From NCBI GenBank assembly GCA_963971285.1, contig OZ020244.1, positions 11,284,001-11,348,000 on the forward strand: a stretch of 64,000 nt of DNA. Direction: 5' to 3'. Origin of the DNA: Astropecten irregularis (lineage: Eukaryota; Echinodermata; Asteroidea; Paxillosida; Astropectinidae). A program made the position numbers and the translations under genes. Each line of letters starts with the position of its first letter. Position 1 is the stretch's first letter. This document shows, one piece after another, positions 6,001 to 63,684 of the stretch. The notes beneath the pieces are model-generated. The model worked only from the letters and a program-made list of their open reading frames with translations, ran no database searches and had not been told where the DNA came from.

Positions 6001-9000
6001 GTCTACGGAAGACAATTAACGGCAGCAGAATGGATAAACAAATTACAATGCAAGCTTTGCTTTTAAACAGCACAGTCTGTCCCATTTCACACTAGCACCC
6101 ACTCACACTACCTATCCTGAGCTCAGATCATGTAAATAGGTTACTTACCAAGGGAAGTGCAAGGTGGACTTGGCAGCAATGGAGGTGAAGGATCTGGAAG
6201 GGTTCTTGTTCTCTTTGGTTCTTCGTGATCATCTAAGACAGAGTTGAAAGACCTCTTTAAACCTTTTCCTCTTACAAAAAGATGCACAGTTGAGAAATTC
6301 AGCCTTATAAAATGTACATTGTATCAGACATCACTAGCTATACTAGACATGAGAATAAATTTCAATGAAAAACATGAAATTATGCACAAATAAGAACAGT
6401 TATTTGAAATAAGGCAAAAACTCCAAGACAGGCTCAAAGAAATAAGAAACACAATAAATTCCTAAAAGTAAAGGGTCATTCCATATGAATTCAACCACAA
6501 TCTTAAAATCTTCCATTGTGACTTAACACATGCAAAAATGTTGGCTTCAATTCGCAATGGTTTCTGAGAAACGCCCTTCTAAAATTTACAGCCACACCCA
6601 CCGGCGCACCCAGGATTTTGTCTTAGGGGGGGCTCAAAGAAAATTTTCTCCCATATAAATCAACTAGGCCTACTATGTGTATGTAAATAATTTAGGGTTG
6701 TATTGTATGTATAATATTAATAATGATGGATCTTCCCATCATGAAATCAGATGTGGAGAGGCATAAACGCCAAGCTGGCAAGATTCAATCTCAATCGCAC
6801 ACCATCATGAATGTATCGTCTGTAATGGCAAACTGTACAAATCCATCAATTGTGATTCAGTAACTACAGACGACAATTTATATAGGCATTGTGAAATCAG
6901 CAGTCAGCCTGGGATTCCGAACTCGCACCAGTACCAGTGCAAGCCCTGCAGTCTAACCACTTGACCACGGTGCCATTGGTATAATAGGGGGCTCCTAATC
7001 CTTTTATTAATACATTATAAAACCTATTGATGTTGACTGAAAAAAGGGATTTACAGTCAAACATCTTTATACAGAGATGAGATTGTCAATATTGAACAGT
7101 TTGCAGATTGCATGTTTTTGCACCAATTATCTGAGATTCAAAAAATCTTATTCCAGACTGAACTAGAAGTTGGTATCATTATGCAGGCAATATGAACTTT
7201 TTAGTTTAGTACATCTTTGAAAATGGTCTGAAAAATCTCATTCCTGTTTTATAACAAGGTCTTTGGAGTTTACAAATTACCTCGTTGTAATAGGTACCAG
7301 TAACTTTTACCATCAGTAATGGAAAACAAAGACTGAGAAACAAGACTCAGGACCATATTTTTTCATAAGCAGGATCAGGGATCGACTGTATTTGTCACAA
7401 AATGTGCACTTTACTTGATAAATCTAGTGAGGCAATTAAAGTGAAAAGTCCAATCTACGATGTTTCAGTGCCATTCGATTGATGACTTCATCGATGTCCA
7501 CATCTGTTGCTCTATGTATAGACATCAGTGCAAGGCCTGTCAGACGCTGGTTGCCCATGGTTGACCTCAAGTAGGATTTAAGGCGACGAAGGGTACTGAA
7601 GGTGCGCTCTGCAGTAGCTGAGGTAGCAGGGATGACTGCAAATATCGTGATAAGTGTGTGTATATTCGGATACAGGTCCGCCAATCCTGGTACTGAAGTC
7701 AGAGTCTCTGTAGGTGTAGATGGTACATTGCCGACGGCATTTTTCCACCGTGCACACCACATATCAAACTCGCCTCTCACTATGCTTTCAGATTGGATGT
7801 CTTTTGCGTACATTTGTACAATGTCCTGGAGTTGATTGAAGTTGGTATCATTGCAGTATGCAGGCAATATGTACTGTAGTTTAGCGCATCTTTCAAAATG
7901 GACTGAAAACCTTGTGCTGAGTTCACTGAGCAATTGATCAATGTAAATGTTAAACATTGATACCCTGAAGTATTCTTCAGCTGATTGAGATGGATGGTTT
8001 TCTCTGGCTGTTTGGCGAGATGCTGTCCGTGGTTTGCGTATGACGCCGTCTACTTCATCAGCCAACTTCGTCGCATCACTGAACAAGCGTCCAAACTCTT
8101 CTTCACTGTTTTCCCTCATTTGGTTGATGACCTGTTGCACATCACGCACAAGTCCCATGCATCCAACTAGGTCACATGTAGGTGACTGCAATTTCCTGGA
8201 CAAGGGTAGGAGAACTCCGCTGAGCCGGTTTAGTATGGTTGTAGCCACGATAAACACTGAAGATCTGAGAGCAGTAAGCAACGTAGACGCTCTTTGCGAT
8301 GATGACCTATCATCATTATGTGACACATAATCAAGGGCCTCCTCTATAGGGACGTATAGCTCATAGAAGACGTTAATAGCCTCGTGCCTTTCAACCCATC
8401 TTGTAGTGCACAGCTTCTTCAGACGGTTGTGTGACGACTGTGGGGCGGTCTTGGTGATGTAGTCACTTAGTAGGCTTTGTCTCTTGGCCGAAGAACCAAA
8501 AAACGAGCAAATCTCTTGAATGGTGCTGATCGTATTTAGTATAGTAGGTAAGTTACTTCCATGAGAGACAACCAGATTCAATACATGACTTGCACAATGT
8601 GTGTATACTGCAAGTGGGTTCTTCTCTCTTATGCATGCTTGGACTCCATTAAATTGCCCGCTCATAGCCGAAGCCCCATCATAACCTTGACCACGCATAT
8701 TCATGGGATCCAGAGTTTTTTCATGGAGTATGTCAAGTATGCTTTTCGCAAGTCCGCGTCCTGTGAGATCATTCACTGTCACAAAAGTCAAAAACTTCTC
8801 ACATACTTTGCCATCATTGACATATCTAACTGACAGGCTCATCTGTTCTTTTGTGGAACAGTCTGTTGTCTCATCCACCAATACACTGAAGTATTTTGCA
8901 TCCTTCACTTCATCAACTATCTTTTCAGATATGATATCTCCAACGGTGTTGATGATCTCATTTTGTGTGTTCCAACTTGTGTACATGGCGTTGCCTCCGG

Positions 9001-12000
9001 CAGTTTCTATGTGCCTCTTCAGACAGTTGTCTCCGGCGTTGATGCGGAAACGAAGGGCTGCCCTGAAGTTTCCATCATTTTCCGTGCATGTGTTGGCGAT
9101 ACTGCCGCTGTCTCGGTGACCACGAAATGAAATTTCCTGCCTTCCCAAAAAGAGCACTGTTTCAATCATAGGTCTGATACGTTGTCTATTGGTTATTGTT
9201 TGTTGTTGTCTTGTGTTGTCAAGTTGGTTGTCAATGCTTGGTACCTTGTCGGTCACAACCTTGAGAAACATCTGACATGAATTGACAGCATCAGCATGAT
9301 ACTTGGCACTGCTGTGCTTGTTGAAGATTTCAATTGCGTCTTTGTATTTGTTAAAGGGAGTGCTCACTAAAGCTTTTAATCTTTGATTTCCGTGTGCTCC
9401 GGCAGATTCAGGGGCAAATATGAGACATGGTTTACAGAAAACACCCTTCTCTGCATCGCTATATGCCAACCAGTTGTATCGTTTTAGCCAGCTATGTTGA
9501 AATCGTCTCCTAGAATTTGTACACTGTGGGAAGTTGAATGAAGAATCAGGTACCCAGCAGTTTGTGATGAGGGCCAACTTTGTTTCATCGTCTAGCAATT
9601 TCCTCCCGTGCGTTTTACTGTAGTTTCCAATGTCGTATTTATTCGTAAAACTATTCACATCAGCTGTGGTAGACTCAATCTGTGTACTGCAGTCGCCTGA
9701 TTTACCTTCACTGCTTCCACGCTGTGGGACGGACTTAAGGATGCTTGAGTCATCAGGGTTGAAAGGGTCATCAGGGGTGTCTTCAGAGCTACCTACTTTG
9801 CTCACTGGGGCAAAGCTTAATTTGGCTTGCTTCAGTTTCTTGGGTGGGGGCCCACTGGTGCTCATTATTCAATTTCTGAGGAAGTACAAATCAAACTTTT
9901 TGATTCAGAAATTTTATTTTAATGCCAGCCCTTAATTTGAATCTCGAACAAAGGGGCTTATAGTTGTAAACTTATTTATAAAAGATGGTTGTCAAATTGT
10001 TATAGGGACCATAGGTAATTATAATTATGTTTGACTTATTGCCACTCATCTGGGTTAGGCTGGTGCCCGCATGATGTCCCCAGAGTATTGCGGTATGTTG
10101 GTGTAATCTGTGTACAGTGCTGCAAAAACAGCCCACTGTACTTGCGATTGATTATACTTACCAAATCTATGGAGTCTGGATTGCAAAGCTATACTCGATC
10201 CTCCCTCTTGATGAAAATGAACTTGAGTGTAATCTGTCGGCAAGATGTTGCTTAAATGAAAGCTAAGTGCGGACCTTGTTGAAGAGATCAAAATAAGATC
10301 CAAGCCACAGCTTAGGCTCCGCCTAGACTGACTCCATCACCATTGCCAAACCGCAAGCACAAATCCAAAGCGGAGTCCAGGCTGGGGTTTGGATAAAGGC
10401 AAATTAGTTGTTCATTCAACGTCCGTACAGCTGAAGGTGTGGCAACAGCCAGCTTTTCATTACGGCGCGAAATTCAGGCGGGGTTTTCCCGAACCCGTCC
10501 AGAATCCAAATTTGCATATCGGATGGGCTAAAATCAATAGAATTTGGTTCGCCGGCATCATGAGGCCTATACTATAACATTTATAAAAAACCTCCTGAGA
10601 AATTGCCTAGCTTTGAGCAAGTCTGCAGTTTTCTATTTACAACATTCATAGAATTTACTACGGGTGAGGACGGGGATCCCGAGCAGACAGTGACGTGCCC
10701 AGGTTTCTCAACTTGCACAAGCTACAGGTCCATTGATCACTGCAATCCAAATAAATTTGAGTGACATAAGATGAAAAGAAATTTAACCTGCCGCGCGGCC
10801 GGGAAAAAAAATGCCCAACAAACATTTTGTGACACCCCCTCCCCTCATTCTCTCCCTTTCCACAGTTTAGGCTCCGCCTAGACTGCCTCCATCACCATTG
10901 CCAAACCGCAAGCACAAATCCAAAGCGGAGTCCAGGCTGGGGTTTGGATAAAGGCAAAGTTGTTCATTCAACGTCCGTACAGCTGAAGGTGTGGCAACAG
11001 CCAGCTTTTCATTACGGCGCGAAATTCAGGCGGGGTTTTCCCGAACCCGTCCAGAATCCAAATTTGCATATCGGATGGATTTAAATCAATAGGATTTGGT
11101 TCGCCGGCATATTTGAGCAACATAAGATGAAAAGAAATTTAACTTGCCGCGCGGCCGGGAAAAAAAACCGCCCAACAAACATTTTGTGACACCCCCTCCC
11201 CTCCCCCTCCTTCTCTTCCTTTCTCTCTCCCCCTATTTTTTTTTCAGGGACCCTCTTGGGGGGGGCTCAAGCCCCCCGAGCCCCCCCCCCTTGGGTGCGC
11301 CACTGGCCACACCCACTTTTGTCACTCGCGAACCGAGAAAGTCAATTTGGGAGGGATTTTGCACGTCAGTTTCCAAAAAACAAAATGGAATTACAGGTGG
11401 AATTTGGGTATTCTAGGTATTTTGCACCCAGAGATTCAAAATCTGCCATCAGAAATACTATCTTATATAGTTTCAGAGAATTTGGCCCCTGAATTTTGAA
11501 ATTTATCAAAATTGGAAGTAACAAATTCAATTTTTTTAAGGGCCCCCATTTGCCCAAGATGCATTCTGTTAGGCTTACAAAAGCATTAATTTAGAAGTTA
11601 GGAGCCCTTGACAAGGGTCCAGGCTGAAAACGGGCAACGTTTTTGCCCATATTTGGCTGTCAAATTCATTCTGTGGGCAATTACCCATGGTAATGAAATG
11701 TTTTCCACTTTAATGTATACATCTGAAATTCATTTGATCAAAATTTCAGAGAGTTTTTTTTACTTCCTTCACTGTAAAATTTTGTGCCTGTTAGATCAAC
11801 GTTTTGGTATTTAAATTTTAAAACTGACCATCAACATCAGCCTCTTCATCACTTGACTGTAGAAACCTCGCTGGCATCATTCGTTTCCGTATTGATTTTG
11901 ACTGGACATCATCGGCGGATTCCAGGTTTGATGTGTCTTCGGCTTTCTTTGCATGCTGCACAGCACGGTCATACGTTTCTGCAACACATGTAATCAATGT

Positions 12001-23843: not shown

Positions 23844-24349
23844 AGTTTTAGAGGGGAGTGTAACCTTAAAATGCCTATTAAGCGGAATGATAATAACTAA
23901 TGAAGGGCTGCTTTGCCTTAGGTTGGAAATAGGTACAGGGCAGAACTTATGCCGAAATTACTCAATAAAGGAAATGAAAAGGTCCGCCTAGGATCATTTA
24001 ATAAATTTAATAATAAACTATAACTTTCACTAATAAGAGCTTACGGACTTAAATGATGTACGTCGACGACTAGGCCACGTTCCTGTGGCTTACCCTTAGC
24101 TGTATACTACTGCCAAGTAGGCTCGACACAGGAACGTGGACATCGGAGAATGGACTACAGATTTGACGGAGTCAATTTGGACGTCTGTACATCAGTGAAG
24201 ACAGAAAGCGAGTGGTGGAGTCTCGTCCAAATGACTGGTCATAAAGGGGGAGCTCCACGCATGCGGTCTCTGCACACCTGTGCATTGCTATGCAAAGCAT
24301 GCACATGCAAATTTCGGTCCGTGCGGTCTAACTTAAACTGGTCACTACA
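23844..24349 (-). repeat. 3' LTR of Gypsy-1
   Basis: In element sense it starts TGTAGTGACC and ends near CTCTAAAACT. A purine-rich tract AGGAGGAGGCTGA (about 24362-24350) lies directly before it, as expected for plus-strand priming. It is identical to the right copy apart from about one base. Confidence 0.85.
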
Positions 24350-24515
24350 TCAGCCTCCTCCTAAGTGCCGGAGGCATTTAAAAAAAAAAATAATTTTCAT
24401 AACACAATTATCTTTTTAATTTGTACAGTTGGTTTGTTTTTGGTTTTTTATATATTTTTTTTTGCTTTTTGTTCTTTTACTTTAATTTTTAGTGCTTGAT
24501 TTTTAGCTGAATATT

Positions 24516-27500
24516 TTAATTAATTAATTCTAGATATCGCTTAGGCCAATGAACCTTCCGGCCTGAGCGAGTGACTCTAACATCTTGTTTAGTCAAGGAG
24601 GGAGTTTGATGTTGTTTCATTTCGTCTCTAATTTCTTGTTTAGTCTCTTCATCCTTGGTAACTTCGTCTTCAAGATAAGCAGCTTTAAGTCTATTAATGC
24701 TAACGGTGTCGCGTTTGCCTTTGACATCTAGAACGAAATATTTGTCTGCACGTTCTAAAACTTTATAAGGGCCTTTGTAAGGAGATTGCAGAGGTTTACG
24801 AACCGAATCCACTCTCACCCAAACATGACTACATTTGTGTAAATCTTTCTCTATGAACGATTTGCTGCTTGACGGTCTTGTTAAAGCTGGTTGGAGTCTA
24901 GCCATTTTGTTTTTTAGTCTGTCAACAAAATCACTAGGGTCTGGTACCTTGTCTTCTGGGGTAGAAGTAACCAATTCACCTGGTAAAGTAAGTGTCGTGC
25001 CAAATACCATTTCAGCGGCACTGCAATTAAAATCACTTTTTAAAGCAGTGCGTATGCCTAACAAGATTAATGGTAAACTATCAGTCCAATTGTTCGGATC
25101 GTTGGTGGCTTTGATAGCTGCTTTCAATTGTCGATGGAATCTTTCAATCAAACCGTTAGCAATAGGATGATAAGCAGTGGTCCTTATTCGTTTGGCACCT
25201 AAGAGTTGTGCTAGTTTGTTGAATAATTGTGATTCGAATTGAGAACCCCTGTCAGTAGTGATGCATGCAGGAACACCGAATATAGAGATCCATCGACAAA
25301 TGAAAGCTTTGGCAACTGTTTCAGCTGTGATGTTAGGAATTGGAATAGCTTCTGTCCAACGAGTGTATCTATCGATTATGGTCAACATATAACTATTACC
25401 ATTGGAAGGAGGTAACGGTCCGACAATATCTATGTGGATATGACTAAAACGTGAATCTGGTTCAGCAAAAGTAGCAATTGGTGCTGCATTATGCCGGTGA
25501 ATCTTAGCTCTTTGACAGGCTAAACAGGCTCTAATCCAATTCCTGACATCACGATTTATACAAGGCCAAACAAATCTTTTTGTGATTAATTGTTGTGTAG
25601 CTCGGATACCTGGATGTGAAAGCGAATGCAAGGATTTAAACACAGTCTTTCTGAATTTGCATGGTACATAAGGTCGAGGTACACCAGTGGAAATATCACA
25701 AGTAATTGTTTTGTCAGACGTTTGGGAGGGCATATCGACAAATCGTAAGGAGGATGATTTACGAAGTTTTTCCAAGTCTTCATCGCCTAACTGTTCATCG
25801 GCAATTTTATCTAAGTCAATGATGCTAGAAGGTTCCAATTTCAGTGTCTCCACAGCACAACGTGAGAGTGCATCTGCGACTACATTTTCCTTTCCCTTAA
25901 TGTGACAGAAATCTGTTGTAAATTGGGATATGTAGTCTAGATGTCTGATCTCGCGTGGGGAATATTTGTCGAGATTTGTGCTGAAAGCGTGAGTAAGCGG
26001 TTTATGATCTGTGTAGACACGAAAATCGCGGCCTTCAAGCATGTGTCGAAAATGTCGTACACTGAGGTATATTGCCAACAATTCCCTACCAAAAGTGCTG
26101 TATCTTGTTTCTGTGGGTTGCAATCGTTTTGAGAAAAAACCAATTGGCTGCCATGTTGAGTCAACTGTTTGCTGCAAAACTCCACCCACAGCTACATTAG
26201 ATGCATCAGTGGTTAGACTTAGAGAAGCGTTTTGGACAGGATGACACAACAATGTTGCTTCAGCTAAAGCCGCCTTACTAGCGTTGAAAGCTTCGGTTTC
26301 AGCGTGGTTAAGTTGGATAGTCTTATTTTGCTTTTTGCCTTTAAGAATATCCGTTAGCGACTGTACAATGTGAGCACATGATGGTATGAATCGTCTGTAA
26401 AAATTCACTAACCCCAAGTACCTTCGTAATTGACGAACTGATGTTGGAATTGGAAAGTCTGTGATAGCGTTTACTTTCTCTGGTAAAGGAGTGACGCCTT
26501 TAGAACTGACATGATGTCCTAAAAACTCAACACTATCAACTCCAAAAGTACACTTGTCTGGATTGACTACTAAACCATACTCATCTAATCGTTGGAATAG
26601 CACTTTCAAGTGTGAATAATGCTCCTCGTTAGAACTACTGGCCACAAGCAAATCATCAATGTAAGCAAATACAAAAGGTAATCCACGTAATACTTGATCA
26701 ATGAATCGTTGGAAGGATTGAGCTGCATTTCGGAGACCAAAAGGCATTCTAGTGAATTCGAACAGACCGAATGGTGTCGTAATGGCTGTTTTGTGAATAT
26801 CGCTAGGTTCGACCGGGATTTGGTGATATGCTCTTGTTAAGTCAATTTTGGAAAAAATGACTTTACCGTGCAAAGATGCTGTGAAATCGTGCACATGTGG
26901 GATTGGATAGCGATCAGGAATAGTTACACTGTTAAGAGCGCGTTAAGAGCGCGATAATCACCGCAAGGACGCCAATCGCCAGTTTTTTTTGGTACCATGT
27001 GGAGGGGAGTAGCCCAACTGCTTTGCGATGGTCGTATGATCCCTAGCTGTAGCATGTGGTCAAATTCTTGTTTTGCAATGTTGCAGCGGTTTGGTGCTAA
27101 ACGGCGTGGACGGGCCTTGACCGGTGGTCCGTTTGTGCGAATGTGATGAGTTACGTTGTGCTTGACATCATTAATACCGTACCGAGGTTTTATCAGGTTC
27201 GGATATTGACTCAGCAAAGTATGATATTCGGATTGGCTAGCGTCGATACCAAATGAGAGACTTGACATGGGTGTTGAGGAATAGAAACCTGGAATAGACA
27301 GTGACGTAGTTGAGTCGATTAATCTGCATCGTTTAATGTCAACCAATAATGCAAAATTGTTGAGAAAATATGCACCTAATATCGGTTGGCTAACATCAGC
27401 GATAACAAAAATCCATCTGAAAATCCGTCTAAGTCCCAAATTCAGAGTAAGTGATTTCTCACCGTAAGTCAAAATTGGTGTTTTGTTTGCCGCAAGTAGG

Positions 27501-27640
27501 GTACTTTCGAAAGGTCTATTTTTCTCAGAAGCTTTAGCAGGAAAGACGCTTACATCAGCACCGGTATCGACTAAGAAATGATTCCCTGAAGACCTATCTG
27601 TCACGCTAATACGACGACTTTCGTAACTTTTGCCAGACAA
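24516..27640 (-). pseudogene. Gypsy-1 pol, broken by an 11-bp duplication
   Basis: Two frames, 27640-26924 (238 aa) and 26894-24516 (792 aa), are one pol gene. The break is an exact 11-bp tandem repeat, GTTAAGAGCGC, at 26931-26941 and 26942-26952. Upstream piece: aspartic protease LVDTGADVSVFPA (catalytic Asp 25 as numbered) and the RT start with [12 protein letters not shown]. Downstream piece: RT with [15 protein letters not shown] and [11 protein letters not shown]; RNase H with [12 protein letters not shown]; an HHCC-type region ending CLACQRAK; integrase core [23 protein letters not shown] and [12 protein letters not shown]; and a C-terminal [17 protein letters not shown] tail. Pol lies in the -1 frame relative to gag and overlaps its end, so frameshifted translation is likely; no textbook slippery heptamer was found. 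All catalytic motifs are otherwise intact. Confidence 0.88.
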
Positions 27641-27651
27641 TTGCGCCGATT

Positions 27652-28515
27652 TTAATTGTTGGCGTTGTCGTTTTCCTGTTTTTGATAAGAGCAGGGTGGG
27701 TTACATTTATTTGCTTTATCACCGTAGCGCCAATGATACCAGCAATGTTCACCTACATGATGAGTTTGAACAGGTGACTGAGAGCTTCGCTCGTATTTTC
27801 TATTACCAAAACCTCGATTGCTTCGGCTACTAGAACGACTTCGGGGCTTTCTACTCAATCTAGTTTCTAAAACCTCGACTTTTCTGGTCAGTTGTTCTAC
27901 CATTTTCATTAATTCTGAGATTTCAGAGGAACCTTCAGACTCTTTAGGTTTAGTAGGCACTATAGCAGAAATTTGGCTTACGGATGGTGCAACTTCAGAA
28001 ATCTTATCTGCAACGGCAGCAAGTTGGTCTATCGAGACTGTATCGCTCGTGGGAGCAAGGATAAGTTGAGCGTTTGTAGGGAGCCTTTGCAAAAACAACT
28101 GTTTTAAAATACTCTCTTCAAGTGCATGGTCTCCTAACAATTGACGCATTCGGCGCAGTAGTTGAGTTGGTTTTCGGTCACCTAATTCTTCCGCTATTAG
28201 TAACTGGTGCAAACGTTTTTGCTCAGAGGCCGAAGTGCGTTTGATAATTTCTTCCTTTAATGTATCATATGCATGGTCACCGGGAGGTTGTAACAATAAA
28301 TCTCGTACCTCGAGAGCTATTTCTGGTTGCAGAGAAGAAACAACATAAGCATATTTTGTCTGTTGTTGTGTGATACCGCGCGTTGCAAATTGGGCTTCCA
28401 CTTGAGCGAACCAAACTCGCGGGTCATTTGGCCAATAGGGCGGCAATTTCAAACTGACAGCAAAATGCTGACTACTCAGTCCTGAAGTATGGGGCTTTTC
28501 TTCCTCTGACGCCAT
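27652..28515 (-). CDS. Gypsy-1 Gag
   Basis: The first ATG of this frame is at 28515 (MASEEEKPHTSG), giving 287 residues. The N-terminal capsid part has LKLPPYWPNDPRVWFAQVEA, typical of Gypsy/Mag-type Gag, followed by helical capsid sequence with KRLHQLLIAEELGDRKPTQL. An Arg/Ser-rich stretch and a zinc knuckle of the form C-x-x-H...C-x-x-x-C (CWYHWRYGDKANKCNPPC) follow near the C-terminus. It would assemble the particle and bind element RNA. The start lies 65 bases after the SGNH ORF stop, and its end overlaps pol by about 40 bases. Confidence 0.85.
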   Translation of the reverse strand: MASEEEKPHTSGLSSQHFAVSLKLPPYWPNDPRVWFAQVEAQFATRGITQQQTKYAYVVSSLQPEIALEVRDLLLQPPGDHAYDTLKEEIIKRTSASEQKRLHQLLIAEELGDRKPTQLLRRMRQLLGDHALEESILKQLFLQRLPTNAQLILAPTSDTVSIDQLAAVADKISEVAPSVSQISAIVPTKPKESEGSSEISELMKMVEQLTRKVEVLETRLSRKPRSRSSSRSNRGFGNRKYERSSQSPVQTHHVGEHCWYHWRYGDKANKCNPPCSYQKQENDNANN

Positions 28516-28580
28516 TTTGTGCTTGGGGGACAAAAGCAATTTAAAGTATATGTCACCAGTTTTAAGGGACAACAGAAACT

Positions 28581-29315
28581 CTATTGAGGCAAATGCATCA
28601 ACAAGGCACGCGCATCAAATTCAAAAGAACGAAAAAGTTCATTGTACCACTTCTTTTTCAACGAGGAGGTGGCATGCAAGCCGTCATACAATTGAGAAAA
28701 ATCGTTACGCAATGATGTATTGTGTTTTCCCGACTTAGTTTTGCGTTTGCTGGGCTTTCTGACCGAAGTATGCCAGGACAGTGTGCGGGTATTAATTCCT
28801 AATTGTAACTCGTGATTGAATTCTCGAATGCGTGCATTGGCCTGGTCAAGTAGAGAATCCAATTGCCTTTGGTTACTACTTAATTCTTCAACTGCCAAAA
28901 TGGGCGACGATAAATGCCTGCTGGCTTGGAATTTGGAAAATGAAACCGAAGGAATTGTTACAATTGAAATAATCGTCAACGGTCTACACTCCAGAATCTG
29001 GCGCTTAAAACGATTCAATTTGGCAAATAAACCATCCAAAGATAGGTCAGATTTCTTTAGGACCTTAGAACGAGAATGAGCGGCATACACAAATTCTGTT
29101 AGATCATTTATCCCAGCTGCAAGTTTTATGATTGTAAAATCAAATCGGTCGTAATGACGTAGTTTGGTCAGAGTAGGTAAAATAAGATCATCAATTTTGG
29201 CGCCTCGCTGGATCACAAAGTCAACACTTAAATTACTGAAAGATGGCTGTAAATACTGATCAAATGAATAGGCTCTAGAATCAGCGACAAATAACTGATG
29301 AACTTGTGTAGGCAT
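28581..29315 (-). CDS. SGNH/GDSL-type hydrolase ORF, first ORF of Gypsy-1
   Basis: An intact 244-residue ORF whose ATG lies 32 bases inside the 5' LTR, right after the primer-binding region. All four SGNH blocks are in order: block I FVADSRAYS (Ser13), block II IQRGAKIDD (Gly38), block III KLAAGINDLT (Gly68-x-Asn70-Asp71) and block V LYDGLHATSSLKKKWYNELF (Asp201, His204). The expected catalytic triad is therefore Ser13-Asp201-His204, with Gly38 and Asn70 for the oxyanion hole. A basic stretch KPSKRKTKSGK precedes block V. There is no signal peptide or membrane segment. SGNH-like esterase domains are known in CR1-type LINE ORF1 and in some Ngaro/DIRS elements; finding one as a separate ORF ahead of Gypsy gag is unusual. 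Substrate and role are unknown. Confidence 0.75.
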   Translation of the reverse strand: MPTQVHQLFVADSRAYSFDQYLQPSFSNLSVDFVIQRGAKIDDLILPTLTKLRHYDRFDFTIIKLAAGINDLTEFVYAAHSRSKVLKKSDLSLDGLFAKLNRFKRQILECRPLTIISIVTIPSVSFSKFQASRHLSSPILAVEELSSNQRQLDSLLDQANARIREFNHELQLGINTRTLSWHTSVRKPSKRKTKSGKHNTSLRNDFSQLYDGLHATSSLKKKWYNELFRSFEFDARALLMHLPQ

Positions 29316-29329
29316 AAGTAAGGTTGTTT

Positions 29330-29347
29330 AATCACGTCAGGGTCACC
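29330..29347 (-). promoter_or_regulatory. Primer-binding region of Gypsy-1
   Basis: Directly inside the 5' LTR, in element sense, the sequence reads (T)GGTGACCCTGACGTG, beginning with the TGG that pairs with a tRNA CCA end. The priming tRNA was not assigned with confidence. Confidence 0.6.
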
Positions 29348-29853
29348 AGTTTTAGAGGGGAGTGTAACCTTAAAATGCCTATTAAGCGGAACGATAATAA
29401 CTAATGAAGGGCTGCTTTGCCTTAGGTTGGAAATAGGTACAGGGCAGAACTTATGCCGAAATTACTCAATAAAGGAAATGAAAAGGTCCGCCTAGGATCA
29501 TTTAATAAATTTAATAATAAACTATAACTTTCACTAATAAGAGCTTACGGACTTAAATGATGTACGTCGACGACTAGGCCACGTTCCTGTGGCTTACCCT
29601 TAGCTGTATACTACTGCCAAGTAGGCTCGACACAGGAACGTGGACATCGGAGAATGGACTACAGATTTGACGGAGTCAATTTGGACGTCTGTACATCAGT
29701 GAAGACAGAAAGCGAGTGGTGGAGTCTCGTCCAAATGACTGGTCATAAAGGGGGAGCTCCACGCATGCGGTCTCTGCACACCTGTGCATTGCTATGCAAA
29801 GCATGCACATGCAAATTTCGGTCCGTGCGGTCTAACTTAAACTGGTCACTACA
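29348..29853 (-). repeat. 5' LTR of Gypsy-1
   Basis: This is the direct-repeat partner of the LTR at 23844-24349. It begins TGTAGTGACC in element sense at 29853 and ends AAAACT at 29348, next to the primer-binding region. From 29854 to about 30659 no gene is seen: the stretch holds a (CAAA)n run near 29892 and may be the 5' untranslated or LTR part of the next, older element. Confidence 0.85.
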
Positions 29854-39280: not shown

Positions 39281-42200
39281 GTCTGCAATACCGTACACTG
39301 GCTACTTCGAAACAGACATACATGCCTTGGGCAACACGATAAAGTCCCGAGTGGTGCTGGTAATTAAGGAGGCCTCCAGCCCACCGCAGGCAAGGAGGGG
39401 GATCCATGGCATCCTGGGGATGAATGTGTTGGAGCAATGTTGGGAGGAGATACTTGGACCTGTCTGCAGTGCCCAGCTCGATAAAATCCTGTGGCCAGTG
39501 CGCGAGCCAGTCTGGCAGAAAGCACTCGGAACGGTGGGAGAGTTTATCTCCTTTGGCGACGACAGAGGATGTGTCGGGCAAGCTTATCTAGGGGGACAGA
39601 CGGTCGTGTTGTCTGCGCACCAGGCGGTCATCATCAAAGCTCAAGGATGCCAAGGGCCAGGGGGACTTGCATACGATGCCCTTCTCGAGCCGACACAAGA
39701 TAAGGGGACAGCTACTGGCATGACTCTTCCCCAATGCCTGGTTCGAGTGGAGTCAGGCACGTTTGATCTCGCCCTATACAACGAGACCGACTCTGAGGTG
39801 GTCATCCCGAAGTCATCAGAGCTGGGTACGCTATACCTGGGGGCAGTAGCTAGAAGCACAGAAGCTGGAAATTCCGACACGAAGTCGGGTGACGTAGACG
39901 AAGCCATCATCAACACAACCCAAGTGTTGGGGGAGGGTTGCAACCTACACGTACCCAAGGTCGACATTGGAAAAGACCTGACGCAGGATCAAGATGACAA
40001 AGTCTCAGCTCTCCTTTGTACACATCGGGGCACCTTTTCGAGCCATGCCCAGGACTTCGGTTACACTGACACGATTGTACACCAGATCCACACAGGGTCT
40101 GCACATCCCACCCGGCAGTGACACCGGCCTCTCCCTCCTACCCAGTATCAGGCAGTGAGGGAGCACATCCACGAGCTGGTCAACAGGGGCATTGTTCGGG
40201 AAAGTGCCAGCCCATGGGCCTCCCCAGTTGTGGTGGTCCAGAAGAAAGATAAGAGCATTCGCCTTTGTGTCGATTACCGCCAACTCAACCAGCGGATCCA
40301 TAGGGACTCCTTTCTCCTTCCCCGGATTGAAGAGTCCCTGCAGGCCCTTGGAGGAGCAAGATTTTTCAGCGTCCTTGACCTGACCAGCGGCTATTATCAA
40401 GTGGCGGTGCACCCCGATGATGTAGAGAAGACGGCTTTTGTGGTCCCTTTCGGATTGTTCGAATACACAAGGCTCCCCTTTGGTTTGTCGAATGCCCCAG
40501 CCACATTCCAGCGGCTCATGCAGAGGTGTCTTGGTGACCAGTGCTTTAATAATGTCCTAATATATCTGGATGACATCATAGTGTATTCACCAGACTTCGA
40601 GTCGCATGTCTCCCACTTAGACAGAGTGTTTTCTCGACTTGGTCAGCATGGGCTGAAGTAAAAAGACCGGAGAAGTGCCACCTGCTGCAGCATAAGGTTC
40701 AATATCTGGGGCATTTGGTATCTGGTGAGGGAGTGGCAGTTGATCCTGCGAAAGTCGAGGTGGTGCAGAATTGGCCGGAGCCTGCGTCAGTTCGCGACAT
40801 CCGTGCATTCCTGGGGTTTACGGGATTCTTCCGCCCGTTCACCAAGGATTATGCAAGTATCGCAGGGCCTCTATTCCAGTACATGCGGGGAGAGAAAAAG
40901 CAGAAGGGCAGGCAGAGCAACAAGAGTATCGTGTTGACCGATGTCGGGCGTGCAAGTTTCCACCAGCTCAAAAGGTGCCTCACGACAGCCCCGATATTGG
41001 CCTATGCTGATTTCACCAGACCGTTCCGTGTTGAGACTGATGCCAGTGGAAATGGGCTGCGTGCGCTCCTTCTGCAGCACGATGATGGGGGTAGGCCACA
41101 GATGATAGCGTATGCATCCAGGGTGCTCCGTCCAGCCAAGAAGAGCGGGAGATACAGCGCGTTCAAATTGGAGCTTCTCGCTGTCAAGTGGGCGGTTACA
41201 GAGGTATTTCGGGACTACCTCATGGGTAACCGATGTGTGATCGTGACTGACCATCACCCTCTGCTCTTCATCGACAAGGCAAACCTGGGTTGCACCGAAA
41301 TGCGGTGGTTACAGTTTCTTAGCGCATATAACTACGAGATGGTGTATAGACCTGGCCGGGACAACCAGGGCCCGGATGCACTCTCCCAGCAGCTCCCGGA
41401 TGCAGGTACAGATGCCCCTTGCACTCAGCCGCCACCTGTAGAAGTCTCTTCCTCCACAGTGCGGGCATGCCTTGGTTGCCAGACGCCTGGAATAGATCTT
41501 CCTCCTGCATTTTCCCACTGCATCGAGGCATGCAGGATTGGAGGCATTCGGTGTTTACCTGGCCACCCACCAGAACACCTACGATCACTGCAGCAAGACG
41601 ATCCCGTGGTAGGGCAGGTCGCCCGCTTCGTGCAACGAGGGAAGAAACCCGACCGAGGTGAAAGGGGGAAGCTCAGCCGAGAAATCTTGGTCATGCTAAG
41701 GGATTGGGATCGGCTCTCCATCATAGACAAGTTGCTCTACAGGAAGGCTATCTCCCCTTCTGATCAGCAGGAGTTCCAGCAGTTGGTCCTTCCCAGTGTG
41801 CTGTGGGACGAGGTGCTCCAAAAATTTCACGATGATGCAGGACACTTTTGGAGCTAAGCGCACATGGCGGCTTCTGTGGGACAGTTCCACTGGCGCGGGA
41901 TGAAGGCCTCCACCAAAGAGTGGTGTTCGAAGTGTCAACGCTGCGCAATCAGTAAACCACCAGTACACCAGACGAAGCCCCCTTTACTTCCCTGTCTGCA
42001 ACTGCGCCCATGGAGATACTCGCCATGGATTTCACAGTTCTGGAGAAGTCCAGGGACGGGTTCGAAAATGTGCTCATAGTTACTGACGTGTTTACTAAAT
42101 ACGCCTGGGCCATCCCCACGAGGGACCAACTAGCGTCCACCGTAGCTAAGTCACTTGTGAAGCATGTCTTCTTGCCCTTTGGAAGCCCTCTCCGTCTGCA

Positions 42201-49069: not shown

Positions 49070-49190
49070 GGGGGACACAAATTACATGGAGGGGGACAGG
49101 TTAAATTCAGGGGGGACATAATTAACACGGCGGGGGGACACTTTTAGCCGGCTGAGTCTGTCCGGGGGGACACGTTTCGAGGGGGGACAG
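49070..49190. repeat. G-rich GGGGGACA repeat cluster
   Basis: Six GGGGGACA motifs (near 49070, 49091, 49110, 49132, 49163 and 49181) lie at 17-31 base spacing and abut the broken end of the Gypsy-3 pol. Several G5-G6 runs on one strand could form G-quadruplexes. From 48087 to 49069 there is no gene that I can support. Confidence 0.6.
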
Positions 49191-51186
49191 ATATAACCTT
49201 TACACCGGAAATACTTCAAGTAAATTACAACAGCCAGTAACTCCCGTCGAGTTACGCAATCATTCCTCTCGGCCTTGCTTAACTTCCGGCTCGCAAAGGC
49301 CAGGACTTTCTCTACGCCGTCATGGACCTCGGACAGGACAGCCCCTATCCCCCCGTTACTCGCATCCGTGTCTAGAATAAATGCGCCCTCTGGCGATGGA
49401 TAGGCCAAGATTGGGGCCTCTTGCAGCGCCCTCTTGATTTCCCCAGACGCATCATCCCAGATAAACTCCTTTGACTTTGACGTAAGTGCATGCAATGGAC
49501 TGGCAATGGTCGCAAATCCCTGTATATACCTTCTGTAATATGAAGCGAGGCCAAGGAAACTCCTCACCTCCTTCACGCACTTGGGACCCGGCCAATCAGC
49601 TACCGCCTCAACTTTGGTGGGGTCGATAGCCAAGCCTTCTTCCGAAACCACGTGAGCCAGGTAGGTCACCGATTTTTGGAAAAGGTTGCACTTACTCGGC
49701 TTCAATTTGAGCTCAGCCTTTCTCAGGCGCTCAAATACCTTGCGCAGACGCTCCAATTCCTCCTCGACCGTTCTACCAAACACAATGACGTCATCTAGAT
49801 AGACCAATAGCATTTCCCATTGCAGTCCAGATAACACCTTTTCCATAACGCGTTCAAATGTGGCGGTTGCGCACTACGAAAGTTTACTTCTGTTGCGCAT
49901 CTTCATCCAAGGTCACTTGCCAGTAACCCGACGCCAGATCTAAGGTGGAAAACCATCTAGCGCCCTCTAGCGCATCTAGTGTGTCATCAATTATGGGGAC
50001 AGGATATGCGTCCTTTATTGTCACGGCGTTAAGGCCTCGGTAATCGATACACAGCCTTTTTGATCCGTCCTTCTTTCTTACTAGTACCACATTTGCCGCC
50101 CAAGGGCTGTCAGATGCCTCAATTGGCCCTTTATTCTTCAAGTCTGCTACCTACCGGTTAATCTCCTGTTGATTTCATACAGGGTGTCTTCTCGGCCTTT
50201 GTTCAGTATCGATACTATGCTTTACTTGGTCAGTAGGCCTAATATCGCTATCGCCCTGAGAAAACACATCCTAATAGTCGATTAAACATTGCTTATGCTT
50301 TAAGCAATCCGGCGGTTTCAAATTCTCTCTACTCCTCTTGTACGAACTCTGTATTAGTAGTGGCTGGGCAACGTGCCAGAACATTCCTCACTCCCCTTAC
50401 TTTGGGGAGGAGCTTCTACTTCAATGGCTACGACTGTGGCTGCGGTAGTCCCTGCCCGGAGGACACGCTTATCCCTATTGGGATTCAGCACTCTAACGGG
50501 CACCACCTCGGCTGGTACGTTCACCAATGTCTTTGCCAAGACTAAGCCTTTTTCACCAAGTTGTCCACCACACTCAATTGGTTCTAGTATCACGGGCCCT
50601 GTCAGCCCTTCATTATGGCCCACTATTCTCCCGGCAATGATGGTCTCATGGCCTGATGGGGTAACCGTAGTCTCAGTGACCACCACCCGACCAATGAAAG
50701 GGTCCCCCGTCACTGCTCTTGCTTCGAATTCGTTCACCATTAACATTCAGCTCCAACCGTCTGAAATCCAGACTTCCTCCAGCCTGTAACAGCCAATCCA
50801 TTCCCAGCATTGTCGGAATAGGCATGTCCGTGAACACCGCCCTCACCAGGTTTACTGTTTTGCCAATCCGTAAGTCAACCCATGCTGTTCCATACACCTT
50901 TAATGGACTACCGTCCACCTGCCACACCCCGGATTCACAATCCTCCAATACTGGTTGTTGTTCCCTTGGCATTAAATGATAGACACTCATACTAATCAGG
51001 GTACGTGCCCGTGGCACCTGTATAAACCAATAACCGGAACTTGGTCGACCGGACCGACCCGTCTACAAACAAACTATGACAGGCTCCGCCCATAGACACT
51101 GTGGTATTGCGTCCTTCACCTTCTAGCTTTCTCTTCTTTACACCTGTTGTGGACCCTTCCCCTGACTCATCCTTCCCGCGGGTCAC
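49191..51186 (-). pseudogene. Gypsy-3 protease-RT-RNase H, broken
   Basis: Protease frames 51186-50992 and 51017-50354: where the catalytic DTG is expected the sequence reads LLVYTGATGTYPD (Asp to Tyr), followed by PREQQPVLEDCESGV and PTMLGMDWLLQAGGSLDF. RT starts at 50141 ([32 protein letters not shown]) and stops after DAQQK at 49884. The next frame (49846) begins MEKVLSGLQWEMLLVYLDDV, so about 20 residues of the central RT fingers region are deleted. RNase H shows FILDTDASNGGIGAVLS and then loses homology at about 49200. The segment 50150-50350 is a decayed linker. No integrase. Confidence 0.75.
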
Positions 51187-58300: not shown

Positions 58301-60050
58301 TTCGAGTTGCGATTAATTCCATAAGTTACTACTATTCTCATTCGATCAATAGCCATATGCCGTGTGTGTTGCATGGAGCAGCTGCATAGACTTGATGACA
58401 AGTCGTTAGACATTCGTGTTTTGTCCATCCGTCCGTCAATATCATGCATCGTTCGTATAGTGAGGCGACGTAATCTTGATTCAGTAGGGGTCGAGGGTGT
58501 TTATGTACCGCGGTCGCGTCCCCGCATGTTGGACATTATGCAGGACGTACACAGTGTAATGTGAACACGCACACCGTACCCCTGGTGTAGCGATACAATT
58601 ACCGACTTCTATAATATCAAGTCTGCCTGCTGCACGTGCACCGGATGCCCGCCCAATTGTGACAGCACCATGACAACATTTTGAGATTACACTGTAATTG
58701 GCCAGTAGCCCTTCTAATAATACTGCCTTATATGGTCAACGTGGATGAGGCATGAATGAGGGCTATACCATTTCGCTGTTTATTGAGGTACATTTAGTTA
58801 TGTTGCATTTTCAATAAATACTATTTATCTCACTTAGTAATAAAACGAGAGGTTGTCGGGACTTGTCACATGAGTTTTTGGATACATACAGTTTAAACGT
58901 GTCGGGGTGAATATTTATTCAAGCCTGACAGCTGACAGCGAAGTTTTTCTCATTCTTAGGCCCACGTGTTTACAATGGATTCGGCTACCATGGCCGGCCA
59001 GCGAGGCTTGGCGCATGGCGCGATGGCATTCAACTACTCGAGTATTAGTCCAGCGGATAAGGGCTATATTACGAGAGAATCGTGCACTTTGTGGTAAAAG
59101 CATGAAACTTGGTACACATGTACTTAATACCAATGCTTGCAATTTTAGATATAGTGCCATCTCTGAATTGGCCTGTGGTGGCCTTGGCGGCCATTTTGAA
59201 AAATGGCCGCCAATTCTGATATAAAACTACATAACTCAGAAAGTAAGAGTCCTAGAATCCTCATTCCAGTGGCTATGTATATGTTTGCCAGGTCCAACAG
59301 TTCAATGAAAGCATTATTGAGTGTGTCATACTTTAAGATCCGCCATTTTCAAGATGGCGTCCTTGTTTTTCAAAATGGCCGACGATTCTGATATAACACT
59401 TTATAACTCGAAAAGTGAGAGTCCTAGAATCTTCATTCCAGTGGGTATGTATATGTTTTCCAGGTCCAACAGTTCAGAAAAAGCATTATTGAGTGTGTCA
59501 GACTTTTAGATCCGCCATTTTCAAAATGGCGTCCTTGTTTTTTCAAAATGGCCGCAAATTCTGATATAACACTATACATAACTCGAAAAGTAAGAGTCCT
59601 AGAATCTTCATTCCAGTGGCTATGTATATGTTTGCCAGGTCCAAAAGTTCAGAAAAAGCATAATTGAGGGTGTCAGACTTTTAGATCCGTCATTTTCAAA
59701 ATGGCGTCCTTGTTTTTTCAAAATGGCCGTCAATTATGATATAAAACTACATAACTCGAAAAGTTAGAGGCCTAGAATCTTCATTCCAGTGACTTTGCAT
59801 ATGTTTGCGTAGTCAAACGGTTAAAAAAAAGCATTGTTGAGTGTGTCAGACTTTTAGGTCTGCCATTTTCAAAATGGCGTCCTTGTTTTGTTTTTTCAAA
59901 ATGGCCGCCAATACTGATATAAAACTTTATAACTCGAAAAGTAAGAGGCCTAGAATCTTCATTCCAGTGACTTTATAATGTTTGCCGAATCTCACACTTG
60001 AGTAAAAAACATTATTGAGTATGTCAGACTTGAAGGTCCTCCATTTTCAA

Positions 60051-62640: not shown

Positions 62641-63684
62641 TTGTTGAGTTCTTGACATATGGAATGTTTTGCCATTGAAATAAGGACACCATAGTCTAAC
62701 AGACTCAATAGTGCGGTTTTTTTTTAAGTGTGAGACTCGGCAAACATATACAAAGTCACTTGAATGAAGATTCTAGGCCTCTGTTATAGTTTTTATATCA
62801 GTTTTATATCAGCTACATGCATAGTATTGGCGGCCATTTTGAAAAACAAGGACGCCATTTTGAAACTGGCGGATCTAAAAGTCTAACACATTCAATAATT
62901 CTTTTATTGAACTGCTGGACCTGGCAAACATATACATAGCCACTGGAATGAAGATTCTAGGACTCTTACCTTTCGAGTTATGTAGTGTTATATAGAATTG
63001 GCGGCCATTTTGAAAAACAAGGACGCCATTTTGAAAATGGCGGATCTAAAAGTCTGACACACTCAATTATGCTTTTTCTGAACTGTTGGACCTGGCAAAC
63101 ATATACATATAGCCCATGGAATGAAGATTCTAGGACTGTTACTTTTCGAGTTATATTAAATTATATCAGAATTGGCGGCCTTTTTGAAAAACAAGGACGC
63201 CATTTTGAAAATGGCGGATCTAAAAGTCTGACACACTCAAAAATGCTTTTTCTGAACTGTTGGACCTGCCAAACATATACATAGCCACTGGAATGAAGAT
63301 TCTAGAACTCTTATACGTTTCGAGTTATGAAGTGTTATATCAGAATTGGCGGCCATTTTGAAAAACAAGGACGCCATTTTGAAAATGGCGGATCTTAAAG
63401 TCTGACACACTCAATAATGCTTTCATTGAACTGTTGGACCTGCCAGACATATATATAGCCACTGGAATGAAGATTCTAGGACTCTTACTTTCTGAGTTAT
63501 GTAGTTTTATATCAGAATTGGCGGCCATTTTTCAAAATGGCCGCCAAGGCCACCACAGGCCAATTCAGAAATGGCACTATATCTAAAATTGCATGTATTG
63601 GTATCAAATACATGTGTGCCAAGTTTCATGCTTTTACCACAAAGTGCACGATTTTCCCCCTTATCCGCTGGACTATATAGACGC

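What the first reader, a model, noticed from the sequence alone, without database searches (positions are those of the whole stretch)
28581..29315. Intact SGNH hydrolase as the first ORF of a Gypsy LTR retrotransposon
The ORF directly follows the primer site and precedes gag on the same strand, inside near-identical LTRs. Ser13, Gly38, Asn70 and Asp201/His204 fall in the four SGNH blocks in the right order. SGNH/esterase domains are established in CR1 LINE ORF1 and in some Ngaro/DIRS elements; I do not know a described Gypsy lineage with a separate one ahead of gag. Because gag is intact and pol has only one recent lesion, the ORF has probably been kept by selection. A membrane-lipid or RNA-particle role is only speculation.
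Basis: partly seen in the sequence, partly recalled or inferred. Interest (0 to 1): 0.88.

Follow-up and report, generated by a model that had tools for sequence, protein, structure and literature searches.

The report
Esterase-like gene ahead of retrotransposon gag
A group of animal Gypsy-type jumping genes carries, ahead of its particle-protein gene, an extra gene for an esterase-fold protein that has been kept over long evolution, an arrangement our limited searches did not find described and whose job is unknown.

Summary

It is not a one-off. Four more families in this genome (46-68% identical SGNH), each with its own LTRs, have the same order. All 19 long SGNH matches outside one satellite-like cluster have gag just downstream. 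Six of 29 database relatives share an exact contig length with a gag protein. Synonymous sites are saturated between families while the protein is kept. Sister elements in this genome have a primer site just before gag and no SGNH.

Function is unproven. I propose a soluble basic esterase, made from the first cistron, acting on the element's RNA-protein particle or a membrane. SGNH ORFs are known in LINEs, Penelope-like and Ngaro elements and rotifer LTR elements (as ORF3), so this is a new variant of a known kind.

The parts
29348..29853 (-). 5' LTR as aligned; begins TGTAG; true 3' end probably 29351, judged from target-site duplications in related families
29332..29348 (-). primer binding site TGGTGACCCTGACGTGA, tRNA-Trp type
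   Evidence: published CsRn1 PBS in PMC2582038 (passages); the host's own tRNA-Trp gene was not checked (tool busy)
28581..29315 (-). SGNH-fold ORF, 244 aa, first ORF after the PBS
28695..28790 (-). conserved basic segment, residues 176-207, holding a modelled strand pair (186-192 and 198-204) ahead of catalytic block V
28552..28564 (-). 13-nt copy (TAAAACTGGTGAC) of the LTR-end/PBS junction, between SGNH stop and gag; its 12-nt core is also in the other 4 family-A copies examined, not seen in B-E
27652..28515 (-). gag, 287 aa from its first ATG; DUF7041 and CHCC (CX2HX9CX3C) motif
   Evidence: motif read by eye against PMC2582038
26924..27640 (-). protease and start of reverse transcriptase; frame breaks at its 3' end
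   Evidence: (protease matches below cut-off)
24516..26894 (-). reverse transcriptase, RNase H, integrase
24350..24364 (-). polypurine tract next to the 3' LTR
   Evidence: by eye
23844..24349 (-). 3' LTR as aligned

Best explanation
SHOWN: this is an accessory gene of a sub-lineage of CsRn1-like Ty3/Gypsy elements, not a chance ORF or a private gene capture. It encodes a small protein of predicted SGNH fold with the catalytic residues kept. In the five families seen whole it sits between PBS and gag, and it has stayed with gag long enough for synonymous sites to saturate. INFERRED: it is translated from the first AUG of the full-length RNA. It has no long hydrophobic stretch, so it probably acts in the cytosol. 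Its basic hairpin binds RNA or acidic phospholipid, while the Ser-His-Asp site hydrolyses a small acyl or acetyl ester. It thus aids assembly, localisation or release of the particle, as proposed for the LINE ORF1 esterase. How gag is started behind a 244-codon upstream ORF (reinitiation, internal entry or splicing) is open. Likelihood: conserved SGNH accessory gene about 0.95; some enzymatic activity about 0.65; lipid- or membrane-linked particle role about 0.35; RNA binding by the hairpin about 0.4.
Against: No activity, RNA-binding or expression data. Pfam and NCBIfam give no significant match for the window's ORF; sequence searches of solved structures found no esterase; a profile comparison with one typed E. 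coli thioesterase I sequence failed. No coordinates were available, so triad geometry is unchecked. Contig-length matches suggest linkage, not gene order. The Mantel test on raw distances was weak (r 0.31, P 0.039). Within families B and E the synonymous excess is not significant (P 0.33 and 0.30), and the C9 cluster ORFs show none (P 0.40). Sister elements without the ORF exist, so the clade as a whole does not need it.
Confidence: 0.7

Rival explanations
1. The protein is mainly an RNA-binding RNP factor, an Oskar-like use of the SGNH fold: the basic hairpin binds the genomic RNA and catalysis is secondary or absent.
For: Basic segment in 27 of 27 relatives and pI 8.4-10.6. [quoted passage not shown]
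Against: The catalytic positions are nearly invariant, which RNA binding alone does not require; OSK is described as inactive.
Confidence: 0.25
2. The ORF works through its position: its translation, or removal as an intron, regulates the ratio of gag to genome, and the protein itself is dispensable.
For: It sits between PBS and gag in families A-E, with 24-105 nt spacers and inconsistent frames, so gag needs some bypass.
Against: Amino acids rather than mere length are conserved (pN far below pS), and catalytic residues are among the best kept.
Confidence: 0.07
3. A recent chance capture of a host esterase gene without function.
For: SGNH genes are common in animals, and retroelements capture genes (both recalled).
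Against: Five diverged families, relatives elsewhere, tree agreement and purifying selection.
Confidence: 0.02

Closest known systems
CsRn1 clade of Ty3/Gypsy (CsRn1, PwRn1, AgCR; PMC2582038, passages)
   Same: tRNA-Trp PBS, CHCC Gag (CX2HX9CX3C), 4-bp target duplications; PR-RT-RNase H-IN order (order recalled for the clade)
   Different: the passages describe a fused gag-pol ORF, two ORFs, or overlapping ORFs, and an env-like third ORF in Boudicca and Saci-3; no ORF ahead of gag was mentioned in them
GDSL ORF3 of bdelloid Vesta LTR elements (PMC5408684, passages)
   Same: an SGNH/GDSL ORF in an LTR retrotransposon
   Different: there it is ORF3, and the authors saw no significant departure from neutrality in intragenomic evolution; here it is the first ORF, with purifying selection
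Esterase of LINE ORF1 in CR1, L2, RTEX (PMC3905857, passages; L2 named in PMC5408684)
   Same: SGNH fold and triad, first ORF of a retroelement, proposed lipid role
   Different: a domain of a multi-domain ORF1p in elements that lack Gag; here a stand-alone protein beside a true Gag
Hydro-SGNH ORF of Ngaro-like elements (PMC9210276, passages)
   Same: separate SGNH ORF in a retrotransposon, no proven function
   Different: different element class, located after the tyrosine recombinase
Oskar OSK domain (PMC12247748, passages)
   Same: SGNH-like fold with positive surface, RNA binding
   Different: OSK is catalytically inactive, a host germ-plasm protein

Membership tests
SGNH hydrolase superfamily | alpha/beta/alpha SGNH fold | tested here: met
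SGNH hydrolase superfamily | Ser, Gly, Asn, Asp/His in four blocks in order | tested here: met
   S13, G38, N70, D211/H214; S, G, N follow strands 1, 2, 3 and D/H precede the last helix in the model
SGNH hydrolase superfamily | match to curated GDSL profiles | tested here: inconclusive
   none for the window ORF; Lipase_GDSL in 8 of 69 and Lipase_GDSL_2 in 3 of 69 members, best E 0.001
SGNH hydrolase superfamily | ester hydrolysis | not testable with these tools
   needs enzyme assay
Ty3/Gypsy CsRn1 clade | PBS for tRNA-Trp | tested here: met
   TGGTGACCCYGACGTGAT in families A-E against the published PBS; one mismatch to it in A, B, D, E, none in C; own tRNA gene not checked
Ty3/Gypsy CsRn1 clade | CHCC Gag motif CX2HX9CX3C | tested here: met
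   CWYHWRYGDKANKCNPPC in the window and in P0037, P0048, by eye
Ty3/Gypsy CsRn1 clade | 4-bp target-site duplication | tested here: met
   cttt, aggt, gatc, gtac in the B, C, D, E copies by eye; the window copy matches at 3 of 4
Ty3/Gypsy CsRn1 clade | RT/RNase H/IN phylogeny within the clade | not tested
   no named reference elements were at hand
CR1-type ORF1 esterase | esterase embedded in a multi-domain ORF1p | tested here: not met
   stand-alone ORF of 235-244 aa in six rows from this genome, beside a separate gag
Vesta-type GDSL ORF3 | ORF located 3' of pol | tested here: not met
   located 5' of gag in families A-E

The most novel reading that the evidence does not exclude
A Gypsy lineage spread over several animal groups has for a long time carried a dedicated, catalytically competent esterase as its first gene, encoding a replication step (lipid or RNP remodelling) not known for any LTR retrotransposon, with gag demoted to the second cistron and expressed by an unusual route.
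Probability: 0.4. Interest if true: 0.78.

Novelty: new variant of a known kind. Interest (0 to 1): 0.62.

Why it matters
SGNH/esterase ORFs are known from LINEs, Penelope-like elements, Ngaro and rotifer LTR elements, and now also ahead of gag in Gypsy. Here the ORF is stand-alone, under purifying selection, and has sister elements without it in the same genome. That makes the open question of what retroelements gain from an esterase testable by comparing like with like. It also poses a translation problem: how gag is made downstream of a long first cistron.

Tried and rejected
Chance ORF and recent useless capture were rejected on conservation, selection and recurrence. In-frame SGNH-Gag read-through was rejected as a general mechanism: the frames agree in B, C, D but not in A and E. 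PBS duplication as the capture scar: the repeat flanking the ORF is in the 5 family-A copies examined but was not seen in B-E, so it cannot mark the original acquisition; left unexplained. Single gain of the ORF: on gag alone (19 own loci, 6 contig-paired and 13 named rows) the separating split has support 33-41; with known-status rows only it is not recovered, m9321 (SGNH+) falling among SGNH- rows. With gag plus protease plus 150 aa of RT, 12 of the 30 gag loci were used and the 6 SGNH- rows separate from the 6 SGNH+ rows (aLRT 90.6, UFBoot 84; L069 has gag only). L053 and L070 (no primer site, no SGNH) were dropped from the status sets; L074 and the other loci were not used. Gain versus loss is not rooted. 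Raw-distance Mantel correlation was weak. L065 has a weak SGNH-profile hit (E 0.007) that lies upstream of its primer site. Sequence search against solved structures found nothing relevant. Viral-contig scans and one scan of prokaryote genomes found no relative. The LINE (ZfL2-1) esterase was not recognised among the 50 rows shown; this excludes nothing. Literature: nine searches (open-licence papers; only 20 of 32 and 15 of 57 papers listed) gave no such arrangement. Of the papers listed, passages were read in PMC5408684, PMC3905857, PMC2582038, PMC12247748, PMC6431247, PMC5718144, PMC9210276 and PMC7599744, PMC9025612, PMC11939994, PMC3286476 (SGNH or esterase there is a reference title, a host plant gene or a neighbouring gene); the rest were seen as listings. 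This is absence from those searches, not proof that it is unpublished. Repbase and Dfam could not be checked.

Full report
What is there. The element lies on the minus strand, 23844-29853, with LTRs of 506 aligned bp and 1 mismatch. In its own direction it reads: 5' LTR beginning TGTAG, PBS TGGTGACCCTGACGTGA, SGNH ORF (29315-28581), gag (ATG 28515, stop 27652), protease/RT start (27640-26924), RT-RNase H-integrase (26894-24516), polypurine tract, 3' LTR. Gag is DUF7041 (E 2.9e-34); pol hits RVT_1, RNase H and rve. Pol has one frame break between the last two ORFs; it is only described here.

Which element. The passages of PMC2582038 that I read give as CsRn1-clade marks a tRNA-Trp PBS, Gag motif CX2HX9CX3C and 4-bp target duplication. 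The window Gag has CWYHWRYGDKANKCNPPC. The PBS differs from the published one by one base in families A, B, D, E and matches in C. Target duplications are visible in the B, C, D, E copies; the window copy matches at 3 of 4 (by eye). RT phylogeny against named members was not possible.

Recurrence. The window's own genome (475.7 Mb, 168 contigs) has 74 matches: five near-identical family-A copies; families B (68%), C (55%), D (49%), E (46%); 30 matches in a cluster on C9 at 4.94-5.59 Mb; and fragments. One copy each of B, C, D and E showed SGNH, gag and pol inside LTRs that are 99.6-100% identical; the E copy L034 lacks protease and part of RT. By eye across, 19 of 19 matches of 200 or more aligned residues outside the C9 cluster have gag directly downstream on the same strand. 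Of the 30 gag loci with flanks (of 106 gag matches), 21 have SGNH upstream and 9 do not. In six of the nine a primer-site-like TGGTGACCC stands shortly before gag (L061, L064, L065, L069, L072, L074; the full site only in L064 and L074); three (L053, L066, L070) show none.

Elsewhere. The protein search gave 29 relatives, the profile search 84. The species-named ones are two Holothuria leucospilota proteins and two from a Sedimenticola MAG (possibly animal contamination, inference). Gag gave 1827 relatives, 120 of them listed, including echinoderms and a jellyfish. Six of the 29 SGNH proteins and six of the 120 gag proteins share exact contig lengths (12783, 7537, 5489, 9321, 14038, 3612), so they very probably sit on the same contigs; gene order there is unseen.

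History and selection. SGNH and gag trees of 12 paired rows share 5 of 9 splits against a random mean of 0.27 (P 2.5e-4); the raw-distance Mantel test was weaker (r 0.31, P 0.039). Between seven representatives (21 pairs) pS is 0.74-0.91 while pN is 0.20-0.43. Within family A, 7 synonymous and 3 nonsynonymous changes were counted against a neutral synonymous share of 0.223 (P 0.0017), like gag (8 and 4, P 0.0015). Families B and E alone are not significant, and four C9 cluster ORFs show no synonymous excess (3 and 7, P 0.40). Elements with and without the ORF separate on gag+PR+RT pieces (aLRT 90.6, UFBoot 84) but not robustly on gag alone. One gain or one loss is possible; I favour gain because the published trematode and insect members are not described with it in the passages I read (inference).

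How it may work. In family A the SGNH AUG is the first after the PBS; the leader of the E copy holds one earlier ATG (by eye). Gag starts 24-105 nt beyond the SGNH stop, in varying frame, so neither read-through nor a fixed frameshift explains gag expression; reinitiation, internal entry or splicing remain. A soluble, basic, probably catalytic protein made in cis fits a role in RNP or particle assembly, lipid remodelling, or both. PMC3905857 (passages) argues for a lipid/membrane role of the LINE esterase; PMC5408684 (passages) suggests membrane passage for the rotifer ORF3. None of this is demonstrated here.

Known or new. SGNH ORFs in retroelements are known; a stand-alone one ahead of gag in a CsRn1-like Gypsy lineage was not found in nine full-text searches. 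I rate it a new variant of a known kind.

Noticed in passing
G000:C9:4.94-5.59 Mb (L035 and others): A satellite-like cluster with 30 of the 74 SGNH matches, 8 of them open at 246 aa without stops; in L035 truncated gag and no pol hit, embedded in kilobases of about 31-bp tandem repeats. Four copies show no sign of constraint.
   Followed up: partly
window 28552-28564 and 29342-29354: A 13-nt direct repeat of the LTR-end/PBS junction flanks the SGNH ORF; its 12-nt core is at both places in all five family-A copies examined, but was not seen in families B-E.
   Followed up: partly
P0157, P0159-P0161, P0163, P0164, P0175, P0176, P0181, P0184, P0185, P0194: Deeper relatives (about 30-40% identity) carry an acidic, serine-rich C-terminal tail ending in a basic W-K-R-like motif, reminiscent of a nuclear localisation signal (by eye).
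   Followed up: no
G000:C19:4.27-4.34 Mb: Several SGNH pieces of 56-68% identity, two places split with the same internal gap (residues about 125-195 missing); remnants or a repeated deletion derivative.
   Followed up: no
window 7436-9865: An 809-aa hAT-type transposase-like ORF (DUF4371, Dimer_Tnp_hAT) on the minus strand.
   Followed up: no
window 40715-41857 and 49082-49846: Two further Gypsy-like pol pieces with RNase H (and RT) matches.
   Followed up: no
window 59046-60030 and 62693-63675: A pair of inverted arrays of about 172-bp tandem repeats, 88% identical to each other.
   Followed up: no
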